The notes under the pieces were generated by a model that was not told the DNA's origin, made no database searches, and saw only the letters and a list, made by a program, of their open reading frames with translations. Source: an uncultured Anaerolineaceae bacterium (GTDB taxonomy: Bacteria; Chloroflexota; Anaerolineae; Anaerolineales; Anaerolineaceae). Taken from it: a stretch of 10,037 bases of DNA. The position numbers were made by a program, and so were the translations under genes. Of this stretch, positions 1-10,005 are shown in pieces (the first letter of the stretch is position 1; every line of letters begins with the position of its first letter). The DNA lies in NCBI GenBank assembly GCA_937894825.1, contig CALCQT010000428.1, forward strand, positions 1 to 10,037. Direction: 5' to 3'.

Positions 1-536
1 AAAAAGGCATCACCCCCGCGGATATTAAAATCACCTACAGCTATAACACCACAGACGCCCAGAAGCTCCGTGCGGAAGCGATCCAGTCCATGTGGGAAAC
101 CAATCTCGGCATCACCGTTGAACTGAAAAACAGCGAGTGGGCAGTGTTTAAAGTTGAACGGCGCGAAGGTCTGGATAATGTCTACCGCGCCTCCTGGGTA
201 CAGGATTATATGGACGCCAACAACTTCACCGCTGATGTATTCCTTTGCCCCGGTGGCGGCTATCAGGAAGTCATCGACTGGCCGTCTGTAGGCTGCGTCG
301 ATCTTTCTGACCCGCAGTATATCGAATATGAAGAAGTCATTAAAGCTGCCGGCAAGGAATCCGATCCGGTCGCACGCGCCGCGCTCTATGCCCGCGGCGA
401 AGAGATTTTGCTGACAGAAGCGGCGATCCTCAATCCGCTGGCCTGGAATAATGCGTATGTGCTGATGAATCCCCGCTTGAGCATCCCGGTGTCCGTAACC
501 GGTTACGAGCGCTGGGAAAAATGGGAAGTCAAATAG
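1..536 (+). CDS. ABC transporter solute-binding protein, oligopeptide/dipeptide type (SBP_bac_5), 3' end only
   Basis: This is the C-terminal 177 residues of a gene that begins outside the window; the frame opens at base 3 and ends with TAG at 534-536. The protein would bind peptides or another small solute outside the membrane and deliver it to an ABC permease pair. Support is family resemblance: an early KITYSYNT-like strand, a Q-S-M-W-E-T-N-L-G-I-T-V-E-L segment typical of the family (an amphipathic helix, then a strand), and a C-terminal block with 'AILNPLAWNNAYVLMNPRL' followed by 'GYERWEKW', which matches how OppA/DppA-like proteins end. The signal peptide and N-lobe are not visible, so ligand class and lipoprotein status cannot be judged. 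A strong terminator follows within 20 bases, so this is the last gene of its transcription unit. Family assignment is fairly secure; substrate is unknown. Confidence 0.8.
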   Translation, partial: KGITPADIKITYSYNTTDAQKLRAEAIQSMWETNLGITVELKNSEWAVFKVERREGLDNVYRASWVQDYMDANNFTADVFLCPGGGYQEVIDWPSVGCVDLSDPQYIEYEEVIKAAGKESDPVARAALYARGEEILLTEAAILNPLAWNNAYVLMNPRLSIPVSVTGYERWEKWEVK

Positions 537-662: not shown

Positions 663-1721
663 TCAAATCAGCCAACAGGCATGTTTCGAGAAATTAAGCA
701 CAATTTCATCGCCAGTCCGGGGGAAGGTCAGATCGCGCTCATTGAAAATATCCGCCGTAATAAAAACATCGTTAACACGGACCCGTAAACGGACAATGGC
801 GCCAAGGAAAAGCACTGAGGCAATCTCGCCACGCAGAACGTTGACTTCCTCATCTGTTGCAGGCAGCCCGATGTGCAATTCTTCCGGACGGATTGCCAGA
901 CGAGGGGATTCCCCCGGCTCGCGTCCGGCGGCCGTTTCAAAATGGACAGTCTGTTCAGCCACCGTGCAGGTGGCAGCATCCAGATCAACTGCTGAAACCG
1001 GCAGCAGGTTCAGCTGTCCGACAAACTGCGCGACAAATTCCGTGGCAGGATGGTTATAGATCATCGAAGGCGAGCCGATCTGCTCCACATGTCCCTGACT
1101 CATCACCATCACGCGGTCGGATAACAACATGGCCTCTTCCTGATCATGCGTGACGTAAATCGTCGTGATTCCCATGGTTTGCTGAATTCGCCGGATCTCC
1201 AGCCGCAGCTCGACACGGATCTTCGCATCCAGCGCCGAGAGCGGCTCATCCAGCAACAGCACCGCCGGATTGATGGCCAGCGCCCGTGCCAGCGCGATCC
1301 GCTGCTGCTGACCACCAGAAAGTTGATAAGGATATTTGTCAATGTGGCTCTCCAGATGCACCAGCGCCAGCATCTCGGCCACCTTTTCTTTGATTTCTGT
1401 TTTGGACAGCTTACGGGTTTGCAGACCAAACCCGATATTCTGGCCGATGGTCATGTTCGGAAAAAGTGCGTAGGACTGGAACACCATGCCGATATTCCGG
1501 TCCCGCGGAGAGAGATTGGTAATATCCGTACCATCCAGAACAATGTTTCCCGTATTCGGCAGTTCAAAGCCCGCAACCATGCGCAGTGTGGTTGTTTTCC
1601 CACAGCCTGAAGGTCCCAAAAAGGAGATGAATTCACCTTTTTCGGCGGAAAGGTTGACATTTTCAACCACAGTTGTTGTCCCGTAAACTTTTGATAGGTT
1701 CGATAATTCTATAAATGCCAT
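663..1721 (-). CDS. ABC transporter ATP-binding protein, PotA/FbpC-like with TOBE domain
   Basis: This 352-residue ATPase powers the importer encoded just upstream; it would sit on the cytoplasmic face, bound to the two permeases. Visible motifs in order are Walker A GPSGCGKTT (36-44), the Q-loop Gln in VFQSYALFP (Q82), the ABC signature LSGGQQQR (134-141), Walker B VLLLDEP (154-160), the D-loop SALD (162-165) and the switch His in THDQEEA (H192). About 120 residues after the nucleotide-binding domain form a TOBE-type regulatory region, recognisable by the 'LAIRPEELHIG' segment near 275-285. Length fits the PotA/FbpC/UgpC group. Start: ATG at 1721 gives the standard beta-strand 'MAFIELSNLSKVYG'; a weak GGAA precedes it. 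It is the last gene of the operon, 32 bases after the second permease. All catalytic motifs are intact. Substrate is not readable. Confidence 0.93.
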   Translation of the reverse strand: MAFIELSNLSKVYGTTTVVENVNLSAEKGEFISFLGPSGCGKTTTLRMVAGFELPNTGNIVLDGTDITNLSPRDRNIGMVFQSYALFPNMTIGQNIGFGLQTRKLSKTEIKEKVAEMLALVHLESHIDKYPYQLSGGQQQRIALARALAINPAVLLLDEPLSALDAKIRVELRLEIRRIQQTMGITTIYVTHDQEEAMLLSDRVMVMSQGHVEQIGSPSMIYNHPATEFVAQFVGQLNLLPVSAVDLDAATCTVAEQTVHFETAAGREPGESPRLAIRPEELHIGLPATDEEVNVLRGEIASVLFLGAIVRLRVRVNDVFITADIFNERDLTFPRTGDEIVLNFSKHACWLI

Positions 1722-1753
1722 ATTTTTTCCATTTGCGTAAAAAGCATGAAAAC

Positions 1754-2551
1754 TCAGCGTCCCCCGGAATGTGTCCCGTTATTTGCTTTGGTTCGGTTGA
1801 AAAGTTGGATCACCATCATCAAAGCCCATGTCATCAGAAAACTGATAATCGTGATGGATGACGATTCATAGGTTTTATTCTGACCAACCAAAGACATGTA
1901 CGGACCGAAGGACTTAAGCCCGATGATGAAACTGGCCATGGTATATTCGCCAATTACTGTAGCCAGCGTCAGGAAAACGCTGCTCAGGATTGCCACCTTT
2001 AAATTCGGAAAAATGACCCGGAAAAGAATCGTCCCCCATCCGGCGCCGAGACTTTGGGCCGCTTCAGTCAGCGAACGGACGTCGATGGCGCTCATACCGG
2101 TATCAATGGCCCGAAAAGAGAAAGGCAGCGTCAAAACGACGTAGGCCGCGACCAGCAACACGTACGTTCCAAAATAGCTGTTTGTCAGGTAAAAAGGCGA
2201 CCCGCTGAACACCCGGATCAAGCCGAACACCAGCACAATGGCCGGAATAACGTAGGAGAGCATGGAGATGAACTCAACCAGCATTCGCAATTGCGGCAAG
2301 CGCAGCCGGATCCAGTACACTGTCGGAACGACCAACAGAATACTGAAAAATACCGTGAACAATGCAATAACCAATGAAAAGCGGATTGTGCTCCAGAACT
2401 GGGGATCTTTAAAGATATTTTCGTACGCGACAAAAGTCAGAATCCCTTTTTTTGCCCGCAGAGAAAAATCAAAAGTCGACAGTAATGGCAAGAAAAAATA
2501 GAGGCCGCCAATGGCAACCCAAAGCCATGACCAAAAGGAACCTCGTTTCAT
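1754..2551 (-). CDS. ABC transporter permease, PotC/FbpB-like (second permease of the operon)
   Basis: This 265-residue integral membrane protein has about six hydrophobic segments, beginning with 'WLWVAIGGLYFFLPLL' and ending with 'IISFLMTWALMMVIQLF'. The cytoplasmic EAA loop that docks onto the ATPase is clear: LTEAAQSLGAGWGTILFRVIF-PN at about 161-183, matching EAA---G---------I-LP. Start choice: ATG at 2551 overlaps the TGA of the upstream permease as ATGA, and an AAAGGTGG Shine-Dalgarno lies 8 bases before it. A GTG at 2563 would add four residues but lies inside that Shine-Dalgarno, so it is less likely. The ATGA overlap implies translational coupling with the other permease, as expected for partners that pair one to one. 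Its polar C-terminal tail is cytoplasmic by inference. Confidence 0.92.
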   Translation of the reverse strand: MKRGSFWSWLWVAIGGLYFFLPLLSTFDFSLRAKKGILTFVAYENIFKDPQFWSTIRFSLVIALFTVFFSILLVVPTVYWIRLRLPQLRMLVEFISMLSYVIPAIVLVFGLIRVFSGSPFYLTNSYFGTYVLLVAAYVVLTLPFSFRAIDTGMSAIDVRSLTEAAQSLGAGWGTILFRVIFPNLKVAILSSVFLTLATVIGEYTMASFIIGLKSFGPYMSLVGQNKTYESSSITIISFLMTWALMMVIQLFNRTKANNGTHSGGR

Positions 2552-3462
2552 TTCCGCAGCCACCTTTCACTGCGTTGGCGCAGAAGATAATAGAAGATCA
2601 TCATAATCAGCATCACAATGACCATTCCAACCGCAAGGGCATAACCCAGTCCGGGATTATAAAGGACATCCCCTTTGATTTGCGCGCCCACCATGATGGT
2701 GATCAGGTTGAGAAAACCGCCGGTCAGGGAATAGGCCGTCGCATAAGCACCGAACGAATTGCCAAACAGCAGAATCATCCCGCCCAGAATGGATGGCGTC
2801 AGAATCGGCAGCATGACTTTACGCAGATAGGTCCCTTGCGAAGCGCCCAGATTCTCAGCAGCTTCCCGCCAATCCGTCTTCAACCCGTCCAGCGCCGGTG
2901 TGATGACCAGAATCATGAGCGGAAACTGGAAGAAGGTATAGGTCAATGAGAGGCCAAGAAAGCTGTACAGGTTGAATCCCATATTGTAGATATTGATATG
3001 GAAAACATTTTTCAACAGCACCGTAATCATGCCGGTCCGGCCCATGGTCGCGACAAAAGCAAAAGCCAGCGGAACGCCGGCAAAGTTGGATGCGACACCC
3101 GAAAAAGTCAGAATCACGGAGCGACCCCCCGCCGGTAATTTTCCGACGGTAATGGCATAGGCCATCAGAAAGCCCAGCAATCCGCCTGCCACGGCGGTAG
3201 TAAAACTGATTCGGATCGAAATCCAGTAGGAACTCAGAATCTCACGGGTGAACAGGTTTGCGAAATTTTGCAGTGTAAAATTTCCGGCATTATCCTGAAA
3301 AGCGCGGGAAACCAGACCAACAGAAGGCAGCACAATGAAGAAAAGCGTGAAAATAAAAAATGGCGCAACCCCGATCCAATCGCTAAAAAACGAATGATGG
3401 GGACGCACGTTGCGTGCGTCCCCGTTCGTGGTTGTATTTGTACTTTTGTCGTTATTTAACAT
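2548..3462 (-). CDS. ABC transporter permease, PotB/FbpB-like (first permease of the operon)
   Basis: This 304-residue permease pairs with the downstream one to form the membrane channel. A polar N-terminus of about 28 residues (Asn/Thr-rich) precedes the first membrane segment 'IGVAPFFIFTLFFIVLP'; about five more follow, ending in 'VGMVIVMLIMMIFYYLL'. The EAA loop is WREAAENLGASQGTYLRKVM-LP at about 198-219. Start: the reading frame stays open further upstream, but those codons lie inside the binding-protein gene. ATG at 3462 overlaps the end of that gene by 11 bases (ATG precedes its TAA) and is the only sensible methionine before the first membrane segment. No good Shine-Dalgarno is visible, so translation probably relies on coupling to the upstream gene. 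A strong hairpin covers codons 14-22. Its TGA overlaps the next start as ATGA. Confidence 0.9.
   Translation of the reverse strand: MLNNDKSTNTTTNGDARNVRPHHSFFSDWIGVAPFFIFTLFFIVLPSVGLVSRAFQDNAGNFTLQNFANLFTREILSSYWISIRISFTTAVAGGLLGFLMAYAITVGKLPAGGRSVILTFSGVASNFAGVPLAFAFVATMGRTGMITVLLKNVFHINIYNMGFNLYSFLGLSLTYTFFQFPLMILVITPALDGLKTDWREAAENLGASQGTYLRKVMLPILTPSILGGMILLFGNSFGAYATAYSLTGGFLNLITIMVGAQIKGDVLYNPGLGYALAVGMVIVMLIMMIFYYLLRQRSERWLRK
3399..3423 (-). promoter_or_regulatory. Strong mRNA hairpin just inside the first permease gene
   Basis: GGGGACGCACG (3399-3409) and CGTGCGTCCCC (3413-3423) form a perfect 11-bp GC-rich stem with a 3-base loop. In the operon mRNA it starts 28 bases after the stop codon of the binding-protein gene and covers codons 14-22 of the permease. 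A TTTTTT run follows 8 bases after the stem, too far for a standard terminator but possibly enough for partial attenuation. In many importer operons a hairpin after the binding-protein gene protects its 3' end and lowers expression of the membrane genes. That role is inferred here from position. Confidence 0.6.
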
Positions 3463-4561
3463 CTGCACCGACAACCGCCATCCAGTTTTCGGCAATGGCT
3501 GCATTGGCTGCGTTGAGTTGATCCAGGGTGGGGAAAGCAACCGGGCCGTCGAAGGAAGGCAATTTGGCAGCAACTTCAGGATCGAGGGTACCGTTCGCTT
3601 TCATGTCTTCGAAGCGGATCGGGTGGCAATAGCCGGAGAGCCAGATGTTCTGACCTTCGTCGCTGTAAAGATATTCCATCCACAGTTTCGCGGCGTTCGG
3701 GTGCGGCGCATAGGCGGAAATAGCCTGAATATAGACACCGGCGATGGTTCCGGAAGCGGGGTAAACAACTTCAATGGTCGGGTTGCCATCCAGCGCGTCG
3801 CGATCGGCCAGCGCATTGTAGTCCCAGCGCAGAATAACCGGGGTTTCGCCCTTGGCGACGGTGGCTTGTTTCGCAATCAACGGCACGAAGTTGCCGGCAG
3901 CGTTGACCTGTTTGAAGAAGTCCAAACCCGGGGTAACGTCATCCAGGGAACCACCATTATACAAAGAAGCGGCATAAACGCTCATCTGAGCCTGGGTTGA
4001 AACACGGGGATCGCCGGAAAGAGCAAACTGGTTCTTGAATTCGGGTTTGAGCAGATCGGCCCAATCCTGGGGAACGGTCTCGACCAAATCAGCGTTGACT
4101 TCGAAAGCCAGGATACCGTAATAATCGCCGTACCAGTATCCGTCAGGATGCTTGGCATCATCCGGGATGGAGTCCCAAGTGGAGACTTTGTAGGGTTCAA
4201 CCAGACCTTCCGCGATCAGCTGCGGGCCAAAGGAGTATCCGACATCCAGAACATCCGGGGCCTGCGGGCCTTTGTTATCTTTGTTGGCTTTCACCGCTTC
4301 AATTTCGTCAGCGGAAGCGCCGTCCGGGTTCAGTTCGTTGACTTCAATGCCATATTTGGCTTTGAAACCATCGATGGCCGCGCCATAATTGCACCAGTCG
4401 CGGGGCAGCGCGATGGTAGTGAGGGTGCCCTCGGCCTGCGCCGCGGCAATCAGTTCATCCAGCGAACCCTGAGCGGAAACGCCGGCGGCATTGAACGCCG
4501 CAAAAGCAAACACAGACGCCAGAACGAATAAAACCAGGAAAAACACTTTATTCTTATTCAT
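3452..4561 (-). CDS. ABC transporter extracellular solute-binding protein (Fe3+/polyamine/thiamine-like family, substrate unknown)
   Basis: This 369-residue secreted protein is the first gene of the operon and delivers the solute to the two permeases. Residues 1-30 are a classical signal peptide (MNKNK, a long hydrophobic core, then AGVSA|QG); there is no lipobox Cys, so it looks like a signal-peptidase I substrate. The mature part begins 'SLDELIAAAQAEGTLT', the usual opening of the family-1/6-type binding proteins, and holds 'APDVLDVGYSFGPQLIAEGLVEPY' split around 101-124, the hinge-like 'YYGILAFEVNADLV' (147-160) and 'DWADLLKPEFK' (166-176). Cys57 and Cys312 are the only cysteines and could pair. 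Start: ATG at 4561 has GGAG six bases upstream; the open frame reaches 4747 but that extension lacks a signal peptide at its N-terminus. It overlaps the permease gene by 11 bases. Related proteins bind ferric iron, polyamines, thiamine or aminoethylphosphonate; none can be preferred here. Confidence 0.9.
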   Translation of the reverse strand: MNKNKVFFLVLFVLASVFAFAAFNAAGVSAQGSLDELIAAAQAEGTLTTIALPRDWCNYGAAIDGFKAKYGIEVNELNPDGASADEIEAVKANKDNKGPQAPDVLDVGYSFGPQLIAEGLVEPYKVSTWDSIPDDAKHPDGYWYGDYYGILAFEVNADLVETVPQDWADLLKPEFKNQFALSGDPRVSTQAQMSVYAASLYNGGSLDDVTPGLDFFKQVNAAGNFVPLIAKQATVAKGETPVILRWDYNALADRDALDGNPTIEVVYPASGTIAGVYIQAISAYAPHPNAAKLWMEYLYSDEGQNIWLSGYCHPIRFEDMKANGTLDPEVAAKLPSFDGPVAFPTLDQLNAANAAIAENWMAVVGADVK

Positions 4562-4576
4562 TTTGTTCTCCATTAT

Positions 4577-4608
4577 CTTGACTAAAATCAAGCGGACGAA
4601 TTGTCCGC
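4577..4608 (-). promoter_or_regulatory. Two adjacent leader hairpins before the binding-protein gene
   Basis: In the mRNA of the minus-strand operon, GCGGAC (4603-4608) pairs with GTCCGC (4592-4597) around a 5-base loop. Immediately after it, CTTGA (4588-4592) can pair with TCAAG (4577-4581) around a 6-base loop. They share base 4592, so they would stack or compete. The second hairpin ends only a few bases before the GGAG Shine-Dalgarno of the binding-protein gene. Possible roles are mRNA stability or control of ribosome access. No known riboswitch consensus was recognised. Confidence 0.4.
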
Positions 4609-4705
4609 CTGAAATTTCTGCACTTTCATTCGCCGCAACTTCCACGATCCCGTCTGCTTGTCCAACAGAACAATAAATTTGATCGGTTTTTCTTAATCGT
4701 GATGC

Positions 4706-4735
4706 AATATATAGAATAAACCCGGCAATTGAAAA
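4706..4735 (-). promoter_or_regulatory. Candidate sigma70-type promoter for the ABC operon
   Basis: On the minus strand TTTTCA (4730-4735) and TATATT (4706-4711) are separated by 18 bases and match the -35 and -10 consensus at four and five of six positions. Transcription would begin near 4699 and give a leader of roughly 140 bases containing the two hairpins. An alternative pair lies further upstream: TTCACG at 4814-4819 inside the tandem repeats and TACAGT at 4792-4797, spacing 16. Neither can be confirmed from sequence alone. Confidence 0.3.
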
Positions 4736-4804
4736 CCTCGTGTGCAACAGGTTAAATTATTGTAAAAACTGCGGGATTTTTTACTGTCTTAACTGTATTT
4801 GCTT

Positions 4805-4850
4805 GTGAACATTCGTGAACGCCAGTGAACGCCAGTGAACGCCAGTGACT
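4805..4850. repeat. Helically phased 10-bp direct repeats (GTGAACGCCA)
   Basis: Three exact copies of GTGAACGCCA occupy 4815-4824, 4825-4834 and 4835-4844. A degenerate unit precedes them (GTGAACATTC, 4805-4814) and a partial one follows (GTGACT, 4845-4850). GTGA therefore recurs five times at exactly 10-bp steps, about one helical turn, so equivalent bases face the same side of the DNA. The array sits in the middle of the divergent control region, about 245 bases upstream of the binding-protein start and 115 bases upstream of the CAP/LysM start. It is most simply read as a regulator-binding array, but replication slippage of a neutral sequence is also possible. Confidence 0.8.
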
Positions 4851-4859
4851 GTTAAAAAA

Positions 4860-4871
4860 GATAGCGCTATC
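4860..4871. promoter_or_regulatory. Perfect 12-bp palindrome, LacI-family-like operator
   Basis: GATAGCGCTATC is an exact inverted repeat with no spacer. Its AGCGCT core with central CG resembles operators of LacI/GalR/CcpA-type regulators. It lies nine bases after the tandem repeats, in the same divergent region and about 95 bases upstream of the CAP/LysM start. No regulator gene is present in the window, so the binding protein is unknown and the assignment is inference. Confidence 0.4.
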
Positions 4872-4965
4872 GGCTGTTCGACAGTGTGTGCCGGAACAGA
4901 AAAGTGTTTCTTTCTTCATTTCTGCAAATGAGGGTATCATTCATAATGATCAAGCGAGGTTTTCC

Positions 4966-6195
4966 ATGAAAACAGCTCTCATCAGTGTAACCCTGCCGCT
5001 GCTATTCTTCCTCATGCAATGTCATGGCATGAGACCTGTTTTTGCACAGGGTGTTGAACAAAATACCAAAGTTGTGAATAAAATTACCGCCAATGATCTG
5101 ATCGCCATGGAAAACGCGTCCCGTAATGCGAACGGCCTCGGCTCGCTTAAAGTTGACAGCAATATTATGAAATGCGCGCAGGAAACAGCCGACACGATGG
5201 CTTATTTCAGCATGGGCGGGCATATCGGCGATGTCAAAACCAGGATATCGTCATGCGGCTATAACAATTTTTACGAATGCTGGGCAACCGAAAACTGGTG
5301 GCAGGGGCCGCCCGGAACCACGCTGGAAGCGGTGAAAGCCGGTTGGGGGGATGCGCCGCACATGATTCCGGCAGAGAATCCGCTTTACTGCCATATCGGC
5401 GCGGGCGTCGCCGAGGCAGCCGATGGGACGATTTATTTTGTTTTGCAGGCAGCTTACCCGGCGAATAAAGCAGGATGTGATTATCTCAAACCGGAAATTG
5501 CCAAAGTTCATGGGCTGGAACCGGTGACGTCGTCCTCCGTCGGCGGCAGTTTTTTCAACGCGGCAGAATTAATATACGGGGTTCGCACGGCGACGCCCGA
5601 CCCTGACGGCCTGATCTATCATACCGTTCGGCAAGGACAAGCGTTATGGCATATCGCGAATGCATATGGAATTTCCGTCGAGGACATTGCGCGCTGGAAC
5701 CATATCAAAGCCGACGCCTCCCTTCGCCTGGGAGAGGTTCTCATCATTCCTTCGGCGGGTGTAACGGTGGCGATCCCGACAGCCATCCCGACAATTTTGC
5801 CGACCATGAACCCGGATGGGAAATTTATTCACACTGTTCGGGAAGGAGAGACGCTCTGGCAGATCGCTGAATTATGGCAGGTTGATTTTTCAAGATTGTT
5901 GGCTGTCAATGGATTAATGGAAGATACGGTAATCAGCGTCGGATGGCGATTATCCATTCCGGCCACGCCTACCGCAACGCCGCTGCCAAGCCCGACCGGC
6001 ACAATCACCACAACGATCCTTCCTACACAAACACCGCCAATTGTTGAGGCATCTGTTCAAGAAGCGCCTCCTTCGGAAACAACGGGAACCCACCCCGTCC
6101 AAAAAAACAGCCGGTTCGTGCTTTTCATGATCGGTCTGGGGATCATCATTGTATGTTTATGTTTTGTGATCATCCGAATGCGAAGCGGCAGGTAG
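4966..6195 (+). CDS. Secreted, membrane-anchored CAP-domain protein with two LysM domains
   Basis: The product is 409 residues with this order: signal peptide 1-27 (cleavage near VFA|QG); CAP/SCP-like domain about 38-165; first LysM 217-262 (YHTVRQGQALWHIANAYGI); a Pro/Thr-rich spacer; second LysM 287-332 (IHTVREGETLWQIAELWQV); a Pro/Thr linker starting PTATPLPSP; one membrane helix about 384-404; and a short basic tail RMRSGR. CAP hallmarks are the early 'ASRNANGLGSLKVD', the GGHIGDV histidine (H86), 'WATENWW' and 'YCHIGAGVA...IYFVLQAAYP'. LysM domains bind peptidoglycan or chitin-like glycans, so the protein probably faces the cell wall from the outer side of the membrane. CAP-domain function in bacteria is poorly known. 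Five cysteines in the exported part may form disulfides. Start: ATG at 4966 has GAGG six bases upstream and begins the signal peptide; the open frame further upstream, from a GTG at 4888, adds only a non-signal-like extension. Confidence 0.88.
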   Translation: MKTALISVTLPLLFFLMQCHGMRPVFAQGVEQNTKVVNKITANDLIAMENASRNANGLGSLKVDSNIMKCAQETADTMAYFSMGGHIGDVKTRISSCGYNNFYECWATENWWQGPPGTTLEAVKAGWGDAPHMIPAENPLYCHIGAGVAEAADGTIYFVLQAAYPANKAGCDYLKPEIAKVHGLEPVTSSSVGGSFFNAAELIYGVRTATPDPDGLIYHTVRQGQALWHIANAYGISVEDIARWNHIKADASLRLGEVLIIPSAGVTVAIPTAIPTILPTMNPDGKFIHTVREGETLWQIAELWQVDFSRLLAVNGLMEDTVISVGWRLSIPATPTATPLPSPTGTITTTILPTQTPPIVEASVQEAPPSETTGTHPVQKNSRFVLFMIGLGIIIVCLCFVIIRMRSGR

Positions 6196-6259
6196 CTGAT
6201 AGTTCATGTTGCCAAGGCATTTCATGATTCAGATATCAAAAGTAGTAGACGGTATCCCT

Positions 6260-6300
6260 TGTAGGGGCGATCACCCCCGCCAGGGTGCGCTGTCCCTACA
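6260..6300. repeat. Imperfect intergenic palindrome, REP/MITE style
   Basis: TGTAGGG (6260-6266) and CCCTACA (6294-6300) form the outer stem. GCG plus CACCC (6267-6269, 6272-6276) pair with GGGTG plus CGC (6283-6290), leaving an AT bulge on the left, a TGT bulge on the right and a CCGCCA-type loop. About 15 base pairs are possible. The 'TGTAGGGGCG ... CCCTACA' layout is familiar from palindromic repeats scattered between genes in many bacterial genomes. It lies between two convergent genes, the usual place for such elements. No T-run follows on either strand, so it is not a standard terminator. Only one copy is in the window, so its repeat status is inferred. Confidence 0.55.
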
Positions 6301-6403
6301 CAGCGCTCATGTAAAAGTTTTTTTCTTCCCCAAATGCTATGCTTTCCGAACATACTTTTGACACTCATATCACCTTTGATTGTGACGTCAAATGGCGGAT
6401 AAC

Positions 6404-8776
6404 CTATGAAATTTCCGCCATCACTTCAACAAACTCCGTCTTCTGATCCGGCAAGGGGATAAGCGTTCCCGCGACCGGCTCCCCATCCACGGTCAGCCGG
6501 CAGGTATTGCCCGGTCCAACCCGCTTGACATTGATCAAATACCGGACGCCGCGGAAAGCCCGCTCAAAGTAGAATTCCTGCCAATCCGGCGGAACTACCG
6601 GTTGAACGCGCAGGCCGTTCCATTCCGGACACACGCCAAGAATGTACTGTGTGATCGCCACATGATTCATGGCAGCCGTTCCGGTTTGCCACGAAACCTT
6701 TCCCTCGCCGGAGGTTGGCGATTCCGGACCCGCGATGGTGCGGGCATAAACATAAGGTTCACAGCGATGGACATCACTGATCTCTTCCCGCGCGGATGGG
6801 CAGATACGCAGATAATAGTCCAGCGCCCGTCCGCCATTCCCGAGTATTGATTCGGCAATCATCGCCCAGGGGTTGGAATGACAAAAAATTGAACCGTTTT
6901 CATGAAAGCCCGGCGGGGAAGCGGAAATCCCGGACAGCGTCGCGTCATACTGCCGATAAGCCGGCCATAAAGACGCGATTCCATGCTGACCGGAACAATG
7001 CAGGTTCAACGATTCCAACGCTGCCTGCGCCTTGCCGCGCTCCAACCCGGCGCACGCTACGCTCGCTATGCTCGCCATCACGCAAAGCGCCTGCGGTTCA
7101 AGAAAAATCCTGCCTTCCGCTGATAGCTGCGATCCGACCGGATTTCCGGCTGCATCATAAGCCCGGCGGAACCAGGCGCCATCCCAACCGGCGCTTTCCA
7201 AAACGGCGGCCATCCGCAATGCTTCCTGCCGGTATGCCTCTGCCTCGTCCGGATTTTCCACCCAAACAGCCAGATCCGCCATTTCATTCGCCGCCAACAC
7301 AAATTGCGCTCCCAGCAAAACGGATTCCGGATTCAGGTCAGCCTGACCAATCTTCGGCAATCCATGCGGACCGATCCGATCCAGTATGGAACGAATGGCG
7401 CGCCGCAGGTGATCCAGCAGCGGTTGTTCGCTCCCCGACCGGTTTTCATACGGCGCCGGTTCGTTCAGAATCGACAGGTCGCCGGTTTCACGCAGATACG
7501 CCGAAACGCTCAGCACCAGCCACAGCGGACTGTCATTGAGATCCGACCCGATCCCATGATTGCTGCCATTCAACGGTCGATATTGAGAGGAAACACCACC
7601 GGAGTCAAACTGCCTTGCCGCCAGAACCAAAATTTGCTGCCGGATCCGATCGGGGACCATGTGTATAACGCCCAACAGTTCCTGATTCGACGCCTGCCAA
7701 CCCGGGCCGCATTCAATCCCGCTACCCAGACGGGAGGTGAAACAGGATAGATTAAACGTGGTCATACATTGATAGGCATCCCAAATGTTCACCATCCGGT
7801 TGACATGCGGGTCCGGCGTATTGACATAAGTCTTTCCCAACCGGGCGCTCCAATACCAGATCAGCTCAGTAAAAGCGGCATCCACAGCAGCAGGATCGGA
7901 CCATTTTTGAATGACGGGATAGACTGTGGTTTTATCAATCAGCCCGGAACCCGGCTGGCTGAATTTTTTCTCCGGCGGATTTTCATGATAACCCAGAATA
8001 AAAATTACCCGCCTGGTCTCGCCGGGAGCAAGCGTCAGCTTCAGGTGGTGCGAACCGATCGGCTGTCCGGAATGCGCCTGTGAGTTGCAGGATTCGCCCT
8101 CCGCAACCGCCCGCGGATTATGCCAGCCCCGGTACGGCCCGAGAAAACTGTCGCGCAGCGTGTCAAACCCGTCCACAGCTTCCGAACAATGCAAAAATGT
8201 GAAATAGTTATACCGGTCACGATAGCCGGACTTGTGATAAATCGTGCTGCCTTCGGTTTCGATTTCGGCGATATCCATGCTGTCCCGGATGGGTGTGGCA
8301 TTCTCCTGGCCATCCCACAAACAGAATTCAACGGCAGAGAAAAGGGAAAGTTCCGCGGTGGTTTCCCGCAGGTTTTCCAAATGAACATCCCAAACTTCCA
8401 ACGTTTGTTTTAATGGGACAAAATAGCGGATCCGGGCCGCAATCTCTTTCTTTTCGGAAGCAATAATGGTATATCCCAAGCCATGCCGGCAGGAGTAATT
8501 ATCCAGATCCCCCATCACAGGCTGCCAGGTGGGCGACCAAAAGGTTCCGTTGCCATTGTCGCGCAGGTAAATGTAACGGCCGCCGGCATCAACCGGAATA
8601 TTATTATTCCGATCGTATGTCAACCGCATATTCCGATAAAATGAATAGCCGCCGGCTGTATTCGAGATCCGGGCAAAATAACCGTCTGTACCGAGATAAT
8701 TCACCCACGGCAGCGGGGTGTCCGGGCGCGTGATAACATATTCGCACTGTGCATCGTCAAAATGACCGTATCGCAT
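6404..8776 (-). CDS. GH94 cellobiose-phosphorylase-like protein lacking the catalytic motif
   Basis: The 790-residue product resembles cellobiose phosphorylase throughout. It opens with MRYGHFDDAQCEYVITRPDTP and 'PWVNYLGTDG', then 'AGGYSFYR' (41-48), 'PVDAGGRY' (61-68), 'CRHGLGYT' (96-103), the linker to the (alpha/alpha)6 barrel near 310-340, 'PPGFHENGSIFCHSNPW' (621-637), 'EPYVYARTIAG' (673-683) and 'SWQTGTAA' (695-702). True enzymes split cellobiose with phosphate in the cytoplasm. Here the D-W-N-D motif with the general acid is gone: 'IGQADLNPESV' (476-486) replaces a longer segment, about 26 residues short. The G-R-G-M-G-F-R-D-S-N-Q-D motif reads ECGPGWQASNQE (355-366). The putative phosphate residues H633 and T698-G699 remain. 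The frame is unbroken and the total length is only slightly short of the roughly 810-820 usual. Start: ATG 8776 follows GGAGG and AAGGA. No signal peptide. Family call is secure; phosphorylase activity is doubtful. Confidence 0.85.
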   Translation of the reverse strand: MRYGHFDDAQCEYVITRPDTPLPWVNYLGTDGYFARISNTAGGYSFYRNMRLTYDRNNNIPVDAGGRYIYLRDNGNGTFWSPTWQPVMGDLDNYSCRHGLGYTIIASEKKEIAARIRYFVPLKQTLEVWDVHLENLRETTAELSLFSAVEFCLWDGQENATPIRDSMDIAEIETEGSTIYHKSGYRDRYNYFTFLHCSEAVDGFDTLRDSFLGPYRGWHNPRAVAEGESCNSQAHSGQPIGSHHLKLTLAPGETRRVIFILGYHENPPEKKFSQPGSGLIDKTTVYPVIQKWSDPAAVDAAFTELIWYWSARLGKTYVNTPDPHVNRMVNIWDAYQCMTTFNLSCFTSRLGSGIECGPGWQASNQELLGVIHMVPDRIRQQILVLAARQFDSGGVSSQYRPLNGSNHGIGSDLNDSPLWLVLSVSAYLRETGDLSILNEPAPYENRSGSEQPLLDHLRRAIRSILDRIGPHGLPKIGQADLNPESVLLGAQFVLAANEMADLAVWVENPDEAEAYRQEALRMAAVLESAGWDGAWFRRAYDAAGNPVGSQLSAEGRIFLEPQALCVMASIASVACAGLERGKAQAALESLNLHCSGQHGIASLWPAYRQYDATLSGISASPPGFHENGSIFCHSNPWAMIAESILGNGGRALDYYLRICPSAREEISDVHRCEPYVYARTIAGPESPTSGEGKVSWQTGTAAMNHVAITQYILGVCPEWNGLRVQPVVPPDWQEFYFERAFRGVRYLINVKRVGPGNTCRLTVDGEPVAGTLIPLPDQKTEFVEVMAEIS

Positions 8777-8829
8777 CGATTCCTTATCCTCCGTCAGGGA
8801 TGTGAGGGTTTTACGCTAAAAGTCAAAAA

Positions 8830-9582
8830 TTATTTCCGGATGTTCTCCAAAAATTCCTGACTGTTGATCTTGCGTTCAAGTACAAAGGTCAGGAAACTGG
8901 TCAGGAGCTGTTCACTCTCCGACCGGATGTCTATGGGCCAACCGGCGGCAAGACAATCCTTAAACCCGTTCTTCTGATAGTAACGCAGGAATTTCAGTGT
9001 CCGCACAGAAATGGGTCGACAGGCCGTCTCATGGCCATAACAGGCGGGACAGACGACCCCGCCCAATGATGCCGAAAAAAATTGATTCTGCGCCTGGATT
9101 TCCCGCCGGCAGATGACACAATTCTGTAGATCCGGGCGGAAACCGGTCAAATCCAACAGCCGTAAATCAAAAAAACGGAGCGCCGGAAAAGGATCCTCCA
9201 TTGAAGCGATGCGGCGAATCGTTTCCACAGCCAGCAGGAAAAGCGGCCGATTCTCCACTTCTTCCAGCGCAAAGCGGTCTGTCAGTTCCGTCACATACGA
9301 GGCTTGGGTGGTCCGTTCGAGCGTGCCGGAAATCTGCGGGAAGGATTCAATCGTGGAGACCTGATCAATGACCCATGCGCCCCCAAGACCCCTGGCCAAT
9401 TGAATCGAAGCCAGTGTAAACGGCTCCAGATGACCGGCCTTTCTTGAGTTCATCCGGCGTACGCCCCGTGCCAGCGCTGAGATTTTTCCCCGCTCGGCCG
9501 TCAACAGCCGCACAAAGCGGTCGGCTTCACCATAGTTATAATGGTGGAGCACCAGTCCCTGAACACGGATGGATCTTTCCAT
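8830..9582 (-). CDS. recO: DNA repair protein RecO
   Basis: RecO works with RecR and RecF to load RecA onto SSB-coated DNA and anneals complementary strands during gap repair. This 250-residue protein has the normal length. The N-terminal OB-fold (about 1-80) shows the classic opening 'RVQGLVLHHYNYGEADRFVRLLTAERGKISALARGVR' in pieces from residue 6 to 42. A helical C-terminal domain follows, with a four-cysteine zinc site CVIC (155-158) and CPAC (178-181). ATG at 9582 lies six bases after the stop of the cytidine deaminase gene and has no clear Shine-Dalgarno, so its translation probably depends on that of the upstream gene. Clustering of recO with cdd (often with era) is common in bacteria. 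The identification is strong. Confidence 0.93.
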   Translation of the reverse strand: MERSIRVQGLVLHHYNYGEADRFVRLLTAERGKISALARGVRRMNSRKAGHLEPFTLASIQLARGLGGAWVIDQVSTIESFPQISGTLERTTQASYVTELTDRFALEEVENRPLFLLAVETIRRIASMEDPFPALRFFDLRLLDLTGFRPDLQNCVICRREIQAQNQFFSASLGGVVCPACYGHETACRPISVRTLKFLRYYQKNGFKDCLAAGWPIDIRSESEQLLTSFLTFVLERKINSQEFLENIRK

Positions 9583-9588
9583 AAGACA

Positions 9589-10005
9589 CTATGCAAGCTT
9601 TTTTTTGTCGAAAGCGCCCGGTAAAATTTCCGCCACAGTGGCGTTCATGATGACCTGCCCGCTTTCATCCGTCGTGATCACTTTCATCTCCGGAGCGAAT
9701 TCACTCATCACCTGACGACAGGCCCCGCAGGGAGAACCGCCGTTTTTTGTGGCGATCACGATGGTGTCAAACGCAAACTCACCTTCACTGACCGCTTTAA
9801 AGATCGCAGTCCGCTCCGCACAAATTGTCAGCGGATAGGAAGCGTTCTCAATGTTCACACCGGTATATACTTTGCCGCTTTTTGTCAACAAAGCGGCTCC
9901 GACAGGGTAGTTTGAATAAGGCACATAAGCCCGTTTCCGCGCTGAAATTGCGGTTTGAATCAAGTCTTCCATTGTTTCACGCTTTTGCTCATTCATCTCA
10001 TTCAT
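9589..10005 (-). CDS. cdd: Cytidine deaminase
   Basis: The enzyme deaminates cytidine and deoxycytidine to uridine and deoxyuridine in pyrimidine salvage. The 138-residue product fits the small homotetrameric type. 'AYVPYSNYPVGAALL' (26-40) and 'GVNIENASYPLTICAERTA' (49-67) supply the substrate-binding Asn/Glu and the first zinc ligand C62 with catalytic E64. 'PCGACRQ' (92-98) supplies zinc ligands C93 and C96. It ends with the usual 'ILPGAF' near 126-131. Start is slightly uncertain: ATG at 10005 opens the frame, with alternatives at 9996 and 9972, none with a good Shine-Dalgarno. A TATACT box ends eight bases before 10005, so the mRNA may be leaderless. recO follows after six bases. Confidence 0.95.
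   Translation of the reverse strand: MNEMNEQKRETMEDLIQTAISARKRAYVPYSNYPVGAALLTKSGKVYTGVNIENASYPLTICAERTAIFKAVSEGEFAFDTIVIATKNGGSPCGACRQVMSEFAPEMKVITTDESGQVIMNATVAEILPGAFDKKKLA

What the first reader, a model, noticed from the sequence alone, without database searches (positions are those of the whole stretch)
7319..7342. GH94 protein has lost its catalytic D-W-N-D segment by an in-frame deletion
Cellobiose phosphorylases carry R-A-D-W-N-D-C-L-N here, followed by about 20 residues and then A-E-S-V; the second Asp of D-W-N-D is the general acid (known GH94 biology, consensus recalled from memory). The window reads Q-A-D-L-N-P-E-S-V at residues 478-486. The simplest alignment removes W-N-D-C and the following loop, about 26 residues, while both flanks (GPHGLPKIG and the helix after ESV) align normally. 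The reading frame stays open for 790 codons. An intact large gene without its catalytic acid suggests a pseudoenzyme (sensor, scaffold, glycan-binding) or a new activity on the GH94 fold.
Basis: partly seen in the sequence, partly recalled or inferred. Interest (0 to 1): 0.78.

Follow-up and report, generated by a model that had tools for sequence, protein, structure and literature searches.

The report
Dead cellobiose phosphorylase, fold kept
A bacterial sugar-splitting enzyme has lost its catalytic acid and much of its active site, yet the rest of the protein still looks protected by natural selection, which suggests it has been kept for a non-catalytic job.

Summary
The 790-codon ORF (6404-8776, minus) is a full-length cellobiose-phosphorylase-like GH94 protein. 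Its catalytic loop (R-A-D-W-N-D-C-L-N...A-E-S-V) is shortened in frame by 26 codons to Q-A-D-L-N-P-E-S-V, removing the general acid. A 99%-identical protein from another contig has the same junction, so assembly error is unlikely.

Of 12 literature active-site residues 6 are gone, and 62 of 252 positions at least 98% conserved have changed (22 of 252 in the intact paralogue of the same genome). The gene is the positional orthologue (cdd-recO-GH94) of intact genes in four same-genus genomes; in the other nine no GH94 was found at the recO locus.

Relaxation is strongest at the most conserved sites (omega 0.0015 to 0.14), mild at intermediate and not significant at variable ones. A "functional, then wholly neutral" model fits worse and predicts about 8 stops; none is seen, and 4 of 4 indels are in frame.

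Best reading: a GH94 pseudoenzyme whose fold is still under selection; function untested. Rivals: a gene on its way out, or a new activity. Known from one species only. AlphaFold supports only the fold: its low-confidence active-site loops recur in the intact control.

The parts
6404..8776 (-). GH94 pseudoenzyme gene, 790 aa, PF06165 + PF17167 profiles matched end to end
7319..7342 (-). Shortened catalytic loop, A479-V486; the 26 missing codons, aligned between N482 and P483 (7330/7331), held the general acid (CgCBP Asp490)
7679..7747 (-). Degraded phosphate / -1 sugar motif, residues 344-366: SCFTSRLGSGIECGPGWQASNQE against SRSASYFESGIGRGMGFRDSNQD in relatives (R345C, R356C, R361Q, D362A)
8279..8311 (-). 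Degraded N-terminal-domain loop, residues 156-166 (relatives A-Q-D-D-A-T-N-F-Q-R-N); taken, from memory of CgCBP, to be the opposing loop that reaches the partner subunit's active site
   Evidence: existence of an opposing loop; its assignment to these residues is recalled
8606..8632 (-). Degraded loop, residues 49-57, with a 3-codon deletion (L006: D-A-R-L-R-R-I-T-R-Y-R-Y)
7529..7594 (-). Degraded segment, residues 395-416, with a 1-codon deletion (H397S, D416S)
6902..6934 (-). Degraded segment, residues 615-625 (Y620S, K625H; CgCBP Y653, K658); E626, N627, F631 and H633 next to it are kept
6668..6742 (-). Residues 679-703: Q679R, A692G, N694V, L697Q, W703M; T698 and G699 (CgCBP T731, G732) kept
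7046..7072 (-). 6-codon insertion against L006, made of a 9-bp tandem repeat (S-I-A-S-V-A-C-A-G); the twin P0001 has one copy fewer
8788..8792 (-). GGAGG Shine-Dalgarno-like sequence 11 nt before the GH94 ATG
8830..9582 (-). recO, conserved upstream neighbour
9589..10005 (-). cdd (cytidine deaminase), conserved neighbour of recO
3..536 (+). C-terminal part of a family-5 solute-binding protein that lies directly beyond GH94 in the four relatives with an intact copy; here separated from it by an ABC operon and a CAP-LysM gene

Best explanation
The gene encodes a GH94 pseudoenzyme: an orthologue of the recO-linked cellobiose-phosphorylase-like gene that has lost phosphorolysis. SHOWN by sequence: the general-acid loop is deleted, and the R-D motif, further sugar-site residues, one phosphate-binding Arg and several active-site loops are replaced, while the ORF, its in-frame indels, most framework residues and a ribosome-binding sequence remain. 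SHOWN by codon models (own implementation): relaxation is strongest at formerly near-invariant positions, the variable rest of the protein being close to background constraint. INFERRED: catalysis is abolished, because the family's mechanism needs this one carboxylate. INFERRED: the folded protein still does something without catalysis, most likely binding (a ligand in the remodelled pocket) or scaffolding with a protein partner. Donating its opposing loop to an active partner subunit looks unlikely, because the loop I take for it is degraded too. Another intact cellobiose-phosphorylase-like gene in the same genome (contig C552) could have relieved it of its catalytic duty.
For: Deletion and substitutions. 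Twin protein with the same lesion. 223 of 224 listed homologues keep D-W-N-D. 62 of 252 positions at least 98% conserved are changed, against 22 of 252 in the intact paralogue L037; at the 176 positions at least 99.5% conserved the figures are 27.8% and 2.3%. 86 positions are at least 99% conserved in 237 GH94 proteins and identical in eleven checked members (L037-L039, L043-L049, L051); 15 of them are changed in the window protein. Branch omega 0.19 against 0.10 background; omega = 1 rejected, LRT 61. Partitioned omega: 0.0015 to 0.142 at sites at least 98% conserved (LRT 74.5), 0.055 to 0.106 at 80-98% (LRT 4.6), 0.267 to 0.339 below 80% (LRT 1.1). A functional-then-neutral model is 15.9 lnL units worse with 2 fewer parameters (not nested) and expects about 8 nonsense changes (P of none 3-4e-4); none is seen in the 790-codon frame and 4 of 4 indels against L006 are in frame. 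Synteny makes it the positional orthologue. GH94 fold. Intact GH94 genes elsewhere in the genome. Mechanism needs a single carboxylate: PMC5667895 passages.
Against: Only one species-level genome and one twin carry it, so constraint AFTER the loss is inferred, not seen by comparing dead orthologues. No GH94 was found at the recO locus in 9 of 14 same-genus genomes, the closest relative by recO (G049) included, so the gene is dispensable in the genus. Second-position GC is higher than in its nearest orthologue (0.463 against 0.412 in L006), the direction expected under partial decay, although the intact L013 has 0.463 too. Omega at 80-98% conserved sites is also raised. A 9-bp repeat in the coding region differs between the two strains, a sign of tolerance. 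Branch models average over time before and after the loss. No expression, binding or activity data.
Confidence: 0.6

Rival explanations
1. A dying gene: inactivated in this lineage and now drifting on the way to deletion, as the locus suggests for the genus; the open frame is luck and recency.
For: No GH94 found at the recO locus in 9 of 14 same-genus genomes. The genome has two other intact GH94 genes. Overall nonsynonymous acceleration and a coding repeat that varies in length.
Against: Change is concentrated at the most conserved positions rather than spread. The neutral-tail model fits worse and expects about 8 stops where none is seen. 4 of 4 indels keep the frame. A GGAGG is kept before the ATG.
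Confidence: 0.22
2. A neofunctionalised enzyme: the remodelled pocket does other chemistry with another acid (for example E626, kept, or E355, new).
For: Many substitutions at once in the pocket; H633, T698, G699, E626, N627 and F631 are retained. Loss of phosphate-binding residues with a change of activity is known in another phosphorylase family, GH130 (PMC4599007, abstract start in the search listing).
Against: The only catalytic carboxylate of the family is deleted with its loop. In the GH130 case basic phosphate-binding residues are replaced by carboxylates; here the three Arg become C, C and Q. No conserved new motif can be defined from one species.
Confidence: 0.12
3. Still an active phosphorylase: an acid from a neighbouring position replaces Asp490.
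For: D480 of A-D-L-N is retained, close to the missing acid.
Against: D480 is the family's own conserved A-D aspartate, not a substitute. The equivalents of W488, R351, R362, R367, D368, Y653 and Q712 are lost as well.
Confidence: 0.03
4. Assembly or sequencing artefact.
For: A fragmented genome (613 contigs, 3.2% contamination).
Against: P0001, from a different contig, has the same junction and the same substitutions while differing elsewhere. Deletion and substitutions keep one frame over 790 codons.
Confidence: 0.03

Closest known systems
GH94 cellobiose phosphorylase (CgCBP 2cqs, C. uda 3rrs, C. thermocellum 8ho8)
   Different: General-acid loop, R-D motif and the W488, R351, R362, Y653, K658 and Q712 equivalents absent.
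recO-linked cellobiose-phosphorylase-like genes of same-genus genomes G037, G045, G039, G044
   Same: Same locus cdd-recO-GH94 next to a family-5 solute-binding protein gene; 59-63% identity over aligned residues.
   Different: They keep the D-W-N-D loop.
GH94 domain of cyclic beta-1,2-glucan synthase (Cgs; PMC10901819)
   Same: Same domain family. Its catalytic-acid mutant had only minor impact while truncation of the C-terminal domain was harmful, which its authors read as a hint of scaffolding: a precedent for non-catalytic use of the GH94 fold (passages).
   Different: The natural Cgs domain is catalytically active and part of a large membrane synthase.
Pseudoenzymes as a class (reviews such as PMC10211241; abstract start in search listing)
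   Different: No paper holds both 'cellobiose phosphorylase' and 'pseudoenzyme' (0 papers); two searches showed 20 of 466 and 20 of 57 papers, none on a GH94 pseudoenzyme. The library is open-licence PMC only.

Membership tests
GH94 (fold / sequence family) | PF06165 supersandwich and PF17167 catalytic domain | tested here: met
   248.9 and 365.7 bits, cut-offs 23 and 27, profiles matched end to end
GH94 (fold / sequence family) | CBP-like three-dimensional fold | tested here: met
Active cellobiose phosphorylase | General acid Asp of the W-N-D motif | tested here: not met
   deleted
Active cellobiose phosphorylase | R-D motif for sugar 1-phosphate (CgCBP R367/D368) | tested here: not met
   Q361, A362; motif from PMC6771811 and PMC5501786 passages
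Active cellobiose phosphorylase | Phosphate site R351, H666, T731, G732 | tested here: not met
   R351 is Cys; H666, T731, G732 kept, so 3 of 4 present
Active cellobiose phosphorylase | Sugar-site residues W488, Y653, E659, N660, F664 | tested here: not met
   W488 and Y653 lost; E659, N660, F664 kept, so 3 of 5 present
Active cellobiose phosphorylase | Reversible phosphorolysis of cellobiose | not testable with these tools
   needs purified protein
GH94 homodimer | Dimer through the beta-sandwich domain with an opposing loop in the partner's active site | not testable with these tools
   no coordinates or complex model; the loop taken for it is degraded
Pseudoenzyme | Catalytic motif absent in an enzyme-family member | tested here: met
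Pseudoenzyme | Kept by selection rather than decaying | tested here: inconclusive
   codon models and the absence of stops favour it, but one species only

The most novel reading that the evidence does not exclude
The old phosphorylase pocket has been rebuilt into a binding site for a different ligand. R351, R362 and K658 equivalents became C345, C356 and H625 around the retained H633 (H666), a two-Cys/two-His set that could hold a metal or serve a redox or ligand switch, turning a catabolic enzyme into a sensor or regulator co-encoded with cdd-recO. That these side chains point at one another was not tested.
Probability: 0.07. Interest if true: 0.7.

Novelty: new variant of a known kind. Interest (0 to 1): 0.45.

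Why it matters
If confirmed it would be a natural GH94 pseudoenzyme, in a family whose domain has an experimentally suggested scaffolding use inside cyclic glucan synthase. It would give a case of in-place conversion of a catabolic enzyme that can be compared with intact orthologues at the same locus. It also warns annotators: PF17167 scores it 365.7 bits, far above the cut-off, so a pipeline that goes by the domain alone will call it a phosphorylase.

Tried and rejected
Low AlphaFold confidence as evidence of a collapsed active site: the window model's low-pLDDT segments (56-63, 157-168, 346-362, 397-414, 478-481, 571-579) looked telling, but the intact relative P0002, folded with the same 54 sequences, is low in the matching loops (49-67, 156-171, 349-366, 402-418, 483-489 and pieces of 499-510) and has a lower mean (80.6). 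Only 571-579, the 6-codon insertion, lacks a counterpart. Rejected.

A wider subfamily with the same deletion: single-piece matches through residues 482/483 at 33-43% identity looked like candidates. Those inspected have naturally shorter loops but keep D-W-N-D or D-W-D-D: L038, L039, L043-L051, L085-L091. The many other such rows were not opened. In one search L085 and L086 seemed to lack the motif; my script had taken an antisense ORF and the right frame has it.

Heterodimer complementation of an active partner: disfavoured because the loop taken (from memory) as the opposing loop is degraded too.

A shared lesion with the nearest relative G049: its contig goes from recO to the solute-binding protein gene within about 150 bases, without GH94. 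G040 has about 2.7 kb there with ORFs that are not GH94.

The 12 literature residues alone (6 of 12 changed) were judged too few for a test; conservation bins and codon models were used instead. The strain twin's DNA could not be fetched, so dN/dS between the two strains was not computed.

Full report
WHAT IS THERE. The window is a contig of a 3.38-Mb, 613-contig genome (G000:C428; completeness 95.9, contamination 3.2). ORF 6404-8776 (minus) has 790 codons, PF06165 and PF17167 profiles matched end to end, no NCBIfam model at E 0.001, and PDB hits led by cellobiose phosphorylases. The nearest named relative is P0002, from a MAG named Flexilinea sp., 63%; the organism is therefore probably a Chloroflexota relative of Flexilinea (inference from names).

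THE DELETION. Residues 478-486 are QADLNPESV. L006, L007 and P0002 read GRADWNDCLNLNCFSD(T/V)PGQSFQTTTNR(E/D)G(K/L)NAESV. 26 codons are missing against L006. P0001, a 787-aa protein whose longest contig is 5,274 bases, has the same junction and differs by I378V, L551R and one in-frame 3-aa indel. The tool lists it without sources, a mark it also gives to proteins the window encodes, so it is another contig and another sequence but perhaps not another sample.

IT IS NOT ONLY THE DELETION. Active-site residues come from PMC5501786 (passages), CgCBP numbering: acid D490; phosphate R351, H666, T731, G732; sugar R367, D368, W488, Y653, E659, N660, F664. By the alignment: D490 deleted, R351 to C345, R367 to Q361, D368 to A362, W488 to L481 (or deleted), Y653 to S620; the other six are kept. 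R362 to C356, K658 to H625 and Q712 to R679 are further changes; their roles are recalled. PMC5667895 (passages) states that only a single carboxylate is required in this mechanism. PMC6771811 (passages) describes the WND and RD motifs as shared by GH149 and GH94 enzymes.

HOW UNUSUAL. Two searches of 5.8 billion proteins listed 224 distinct proteins; 223 contain DWND and P0001 does not. One search listed the best 120 of 7,935 matches and the best 120 of 1,376, so lesions further down are not excluded. In 147 same-family genomes (102 with a match) and 396 class genomes (160 with a match; some genomes are in both sets) no other printed row above 43% identity runs through residues 482/483 in one piece; not all rows are printed. 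Of the 29 loci L006-L034, 28 show DWND and L032 is cut off before the site. The inspected shorter-loop members keep DWND or DWDD.

CONSERVATION TEST. Against 225 homologues, 62 of 252 positions conserved in at least 98% are changed in the window protein, and 62 in P0001; 22 in L037, the intact paralogue of the same genome, which was held out; the median row has 1. Two more distant members of other GH94 types, also held out, reach 79 (L039) and 66 (L049), so the count alone does not mark a dead enzyme: what differs is which positions change. The 86-position test asks for that: positions at least 99% conserved across 237 GH94 proteins and identical in eleven checked members (L037-L039, L043-L049, L051); 15 are changed in the window protein, among them R54, D159, R345, R361, D362, H397, D416, W481, three deleted positions, K625 and Q679. 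Per bin, the window protein differs from the family residue at 18.4% of 90-95% positions but 27.8% of positions at least 99.5% conserved; L037 shows 31.6% and 2.3%. L039 and L049, from other GH94 types, show 30.7% and 22.7% in the top bin but also 50% at 90-95%. The changes cluster along the sequence (51 substitutions, adjacent pairs 18 against 10.6 expected, p 0.004; with the deletion 29 against 15).

SELECTION. Eight orthologous genes, 784 codons, own GY94-type codon likelihood (not PAML), one weakly supported internal node (42). One omega 0.110; two omegas 0.103 background and 0.191 on the window branch, LRT 10.8; omega 1 on that branch rejected, LRT 61. Partitioned by conservation in 218 homologues with the eight tips held out: 242 sites at 98% or more, 0.0015 background and 0.142 window; 228 sites at 80-98%, 0.055 and 0.106; 314 sites below 80%, 0.267 and 0.339 (LRTs for equality 74.5, 4.6, 1.1). 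A model of ordinary constraint followed by complete neutrality gives lnL -13863.96 against -13848.05, a neutral fraction of 0.117, and about 8 expected nonsense changes. Observed stops: none. The four indels against L006 (-3, -1, -26, +6 codons) are all in frame. Against this reading: GC at second positions is higher than in L006, the 80-98% class is mildly relaxed, and branch models average over time before and after the loss.

LOCUS AND HISTORY. cdd-recO-GH94 followed by a convergent family-5 solute-binding protein gene is shared with G037, G045, G044 and G039 (L035, L036, L040, L041). In the window an ABC transporter operon and a CAP-LysM gene lie between GH94 and that gene. All 14 same-genus genomes, this one included, have recO. 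The recO stretches of G038, G040, G041, G042, G043, G046, G047, G048 and G049 gave no GH94 hit at E 0.001; for G048 only 1.5 kb downstream of recO is on the contig. The one GH94 hit in the ten stretches was at the edge of another G049 contig, L076. In G049 and G041 recO and the solute-binding protein gene are about 150 bases apart. GH94 is faster on the window lineage: G000-G037 amino-acid difference 0.374 against 0.285 for G037-G039, while recO gives 0.301 and 0.430 and cdd 0.386 and 0.432. The genome keeps two intact GH94 genes, C552 (48%) and C216; the C552 type is 60-61% identical to genes in G042, G043, G047 and G048 and 57-58% to the intact recO-linked ones.

STRUCTURE. The window model has pLDDT 83.3 and pTM 0.87 and matches CBP throughout. 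Its low-confidence active-site loops also appear in the intact control and are no evidence.

CONCLUSION. Loss of phosphorylase activity is very likely (inference from missing residues). Retention of a non-catalytic function is the best reading at 0.6; drift towards loss 0.22; new activity 0.12; the rest residual activity or artefact. PMC10901819 (passages) gives a precedent for a scaffolding use of a GH94 domain.

Noticed in passing
window 663-6195: An ABC transporter operon (ATPase with TOBE_2, two permeases, SBP_bac_6 binding protein; 663-4747) and a CAP + LysM protein gene (4888-6195) lie between GH94 and the solute-binding protein gene that is its direct neighbour in four relatives: an apparent insertion at this locus.
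   Followed up: partly
L077:6016-8486: In genome G040 the recO/solute-binding-protein interval holds two adjacent ORFs (197 and 278 aa) that by eye resemble an AbiEi/AbiEii-type pair, and an exonuclease-like ORF (258 aa), instead of GH94; no family search was run.
   Followed up: no
window 7046-7072: 9-bp coding tandem repeat that differs by one copy between the window protein and its 99% twin P0001.
   Followed up: partly
window 6255-6305: GC-rich stretch GTAGGGGCGATCACCCCCGCC...GTCCCTAC downstream of GH94 that looks like a short interspersed or palindromic element; the repeat finder reported no inverted repeat of 12 or more there.
   Followed up: partly
L037 (G000:C552) and L076 (G049:C626): The intact cellobiose-phosphorylase-like paralogue of this genome is 96% identical over 53 residues to a contig-edge fragment in G049, so the two close relatives share the paralogue while the recO-linked copy is dead in one and absent from the recO locus in the other.
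   Followed up: partly
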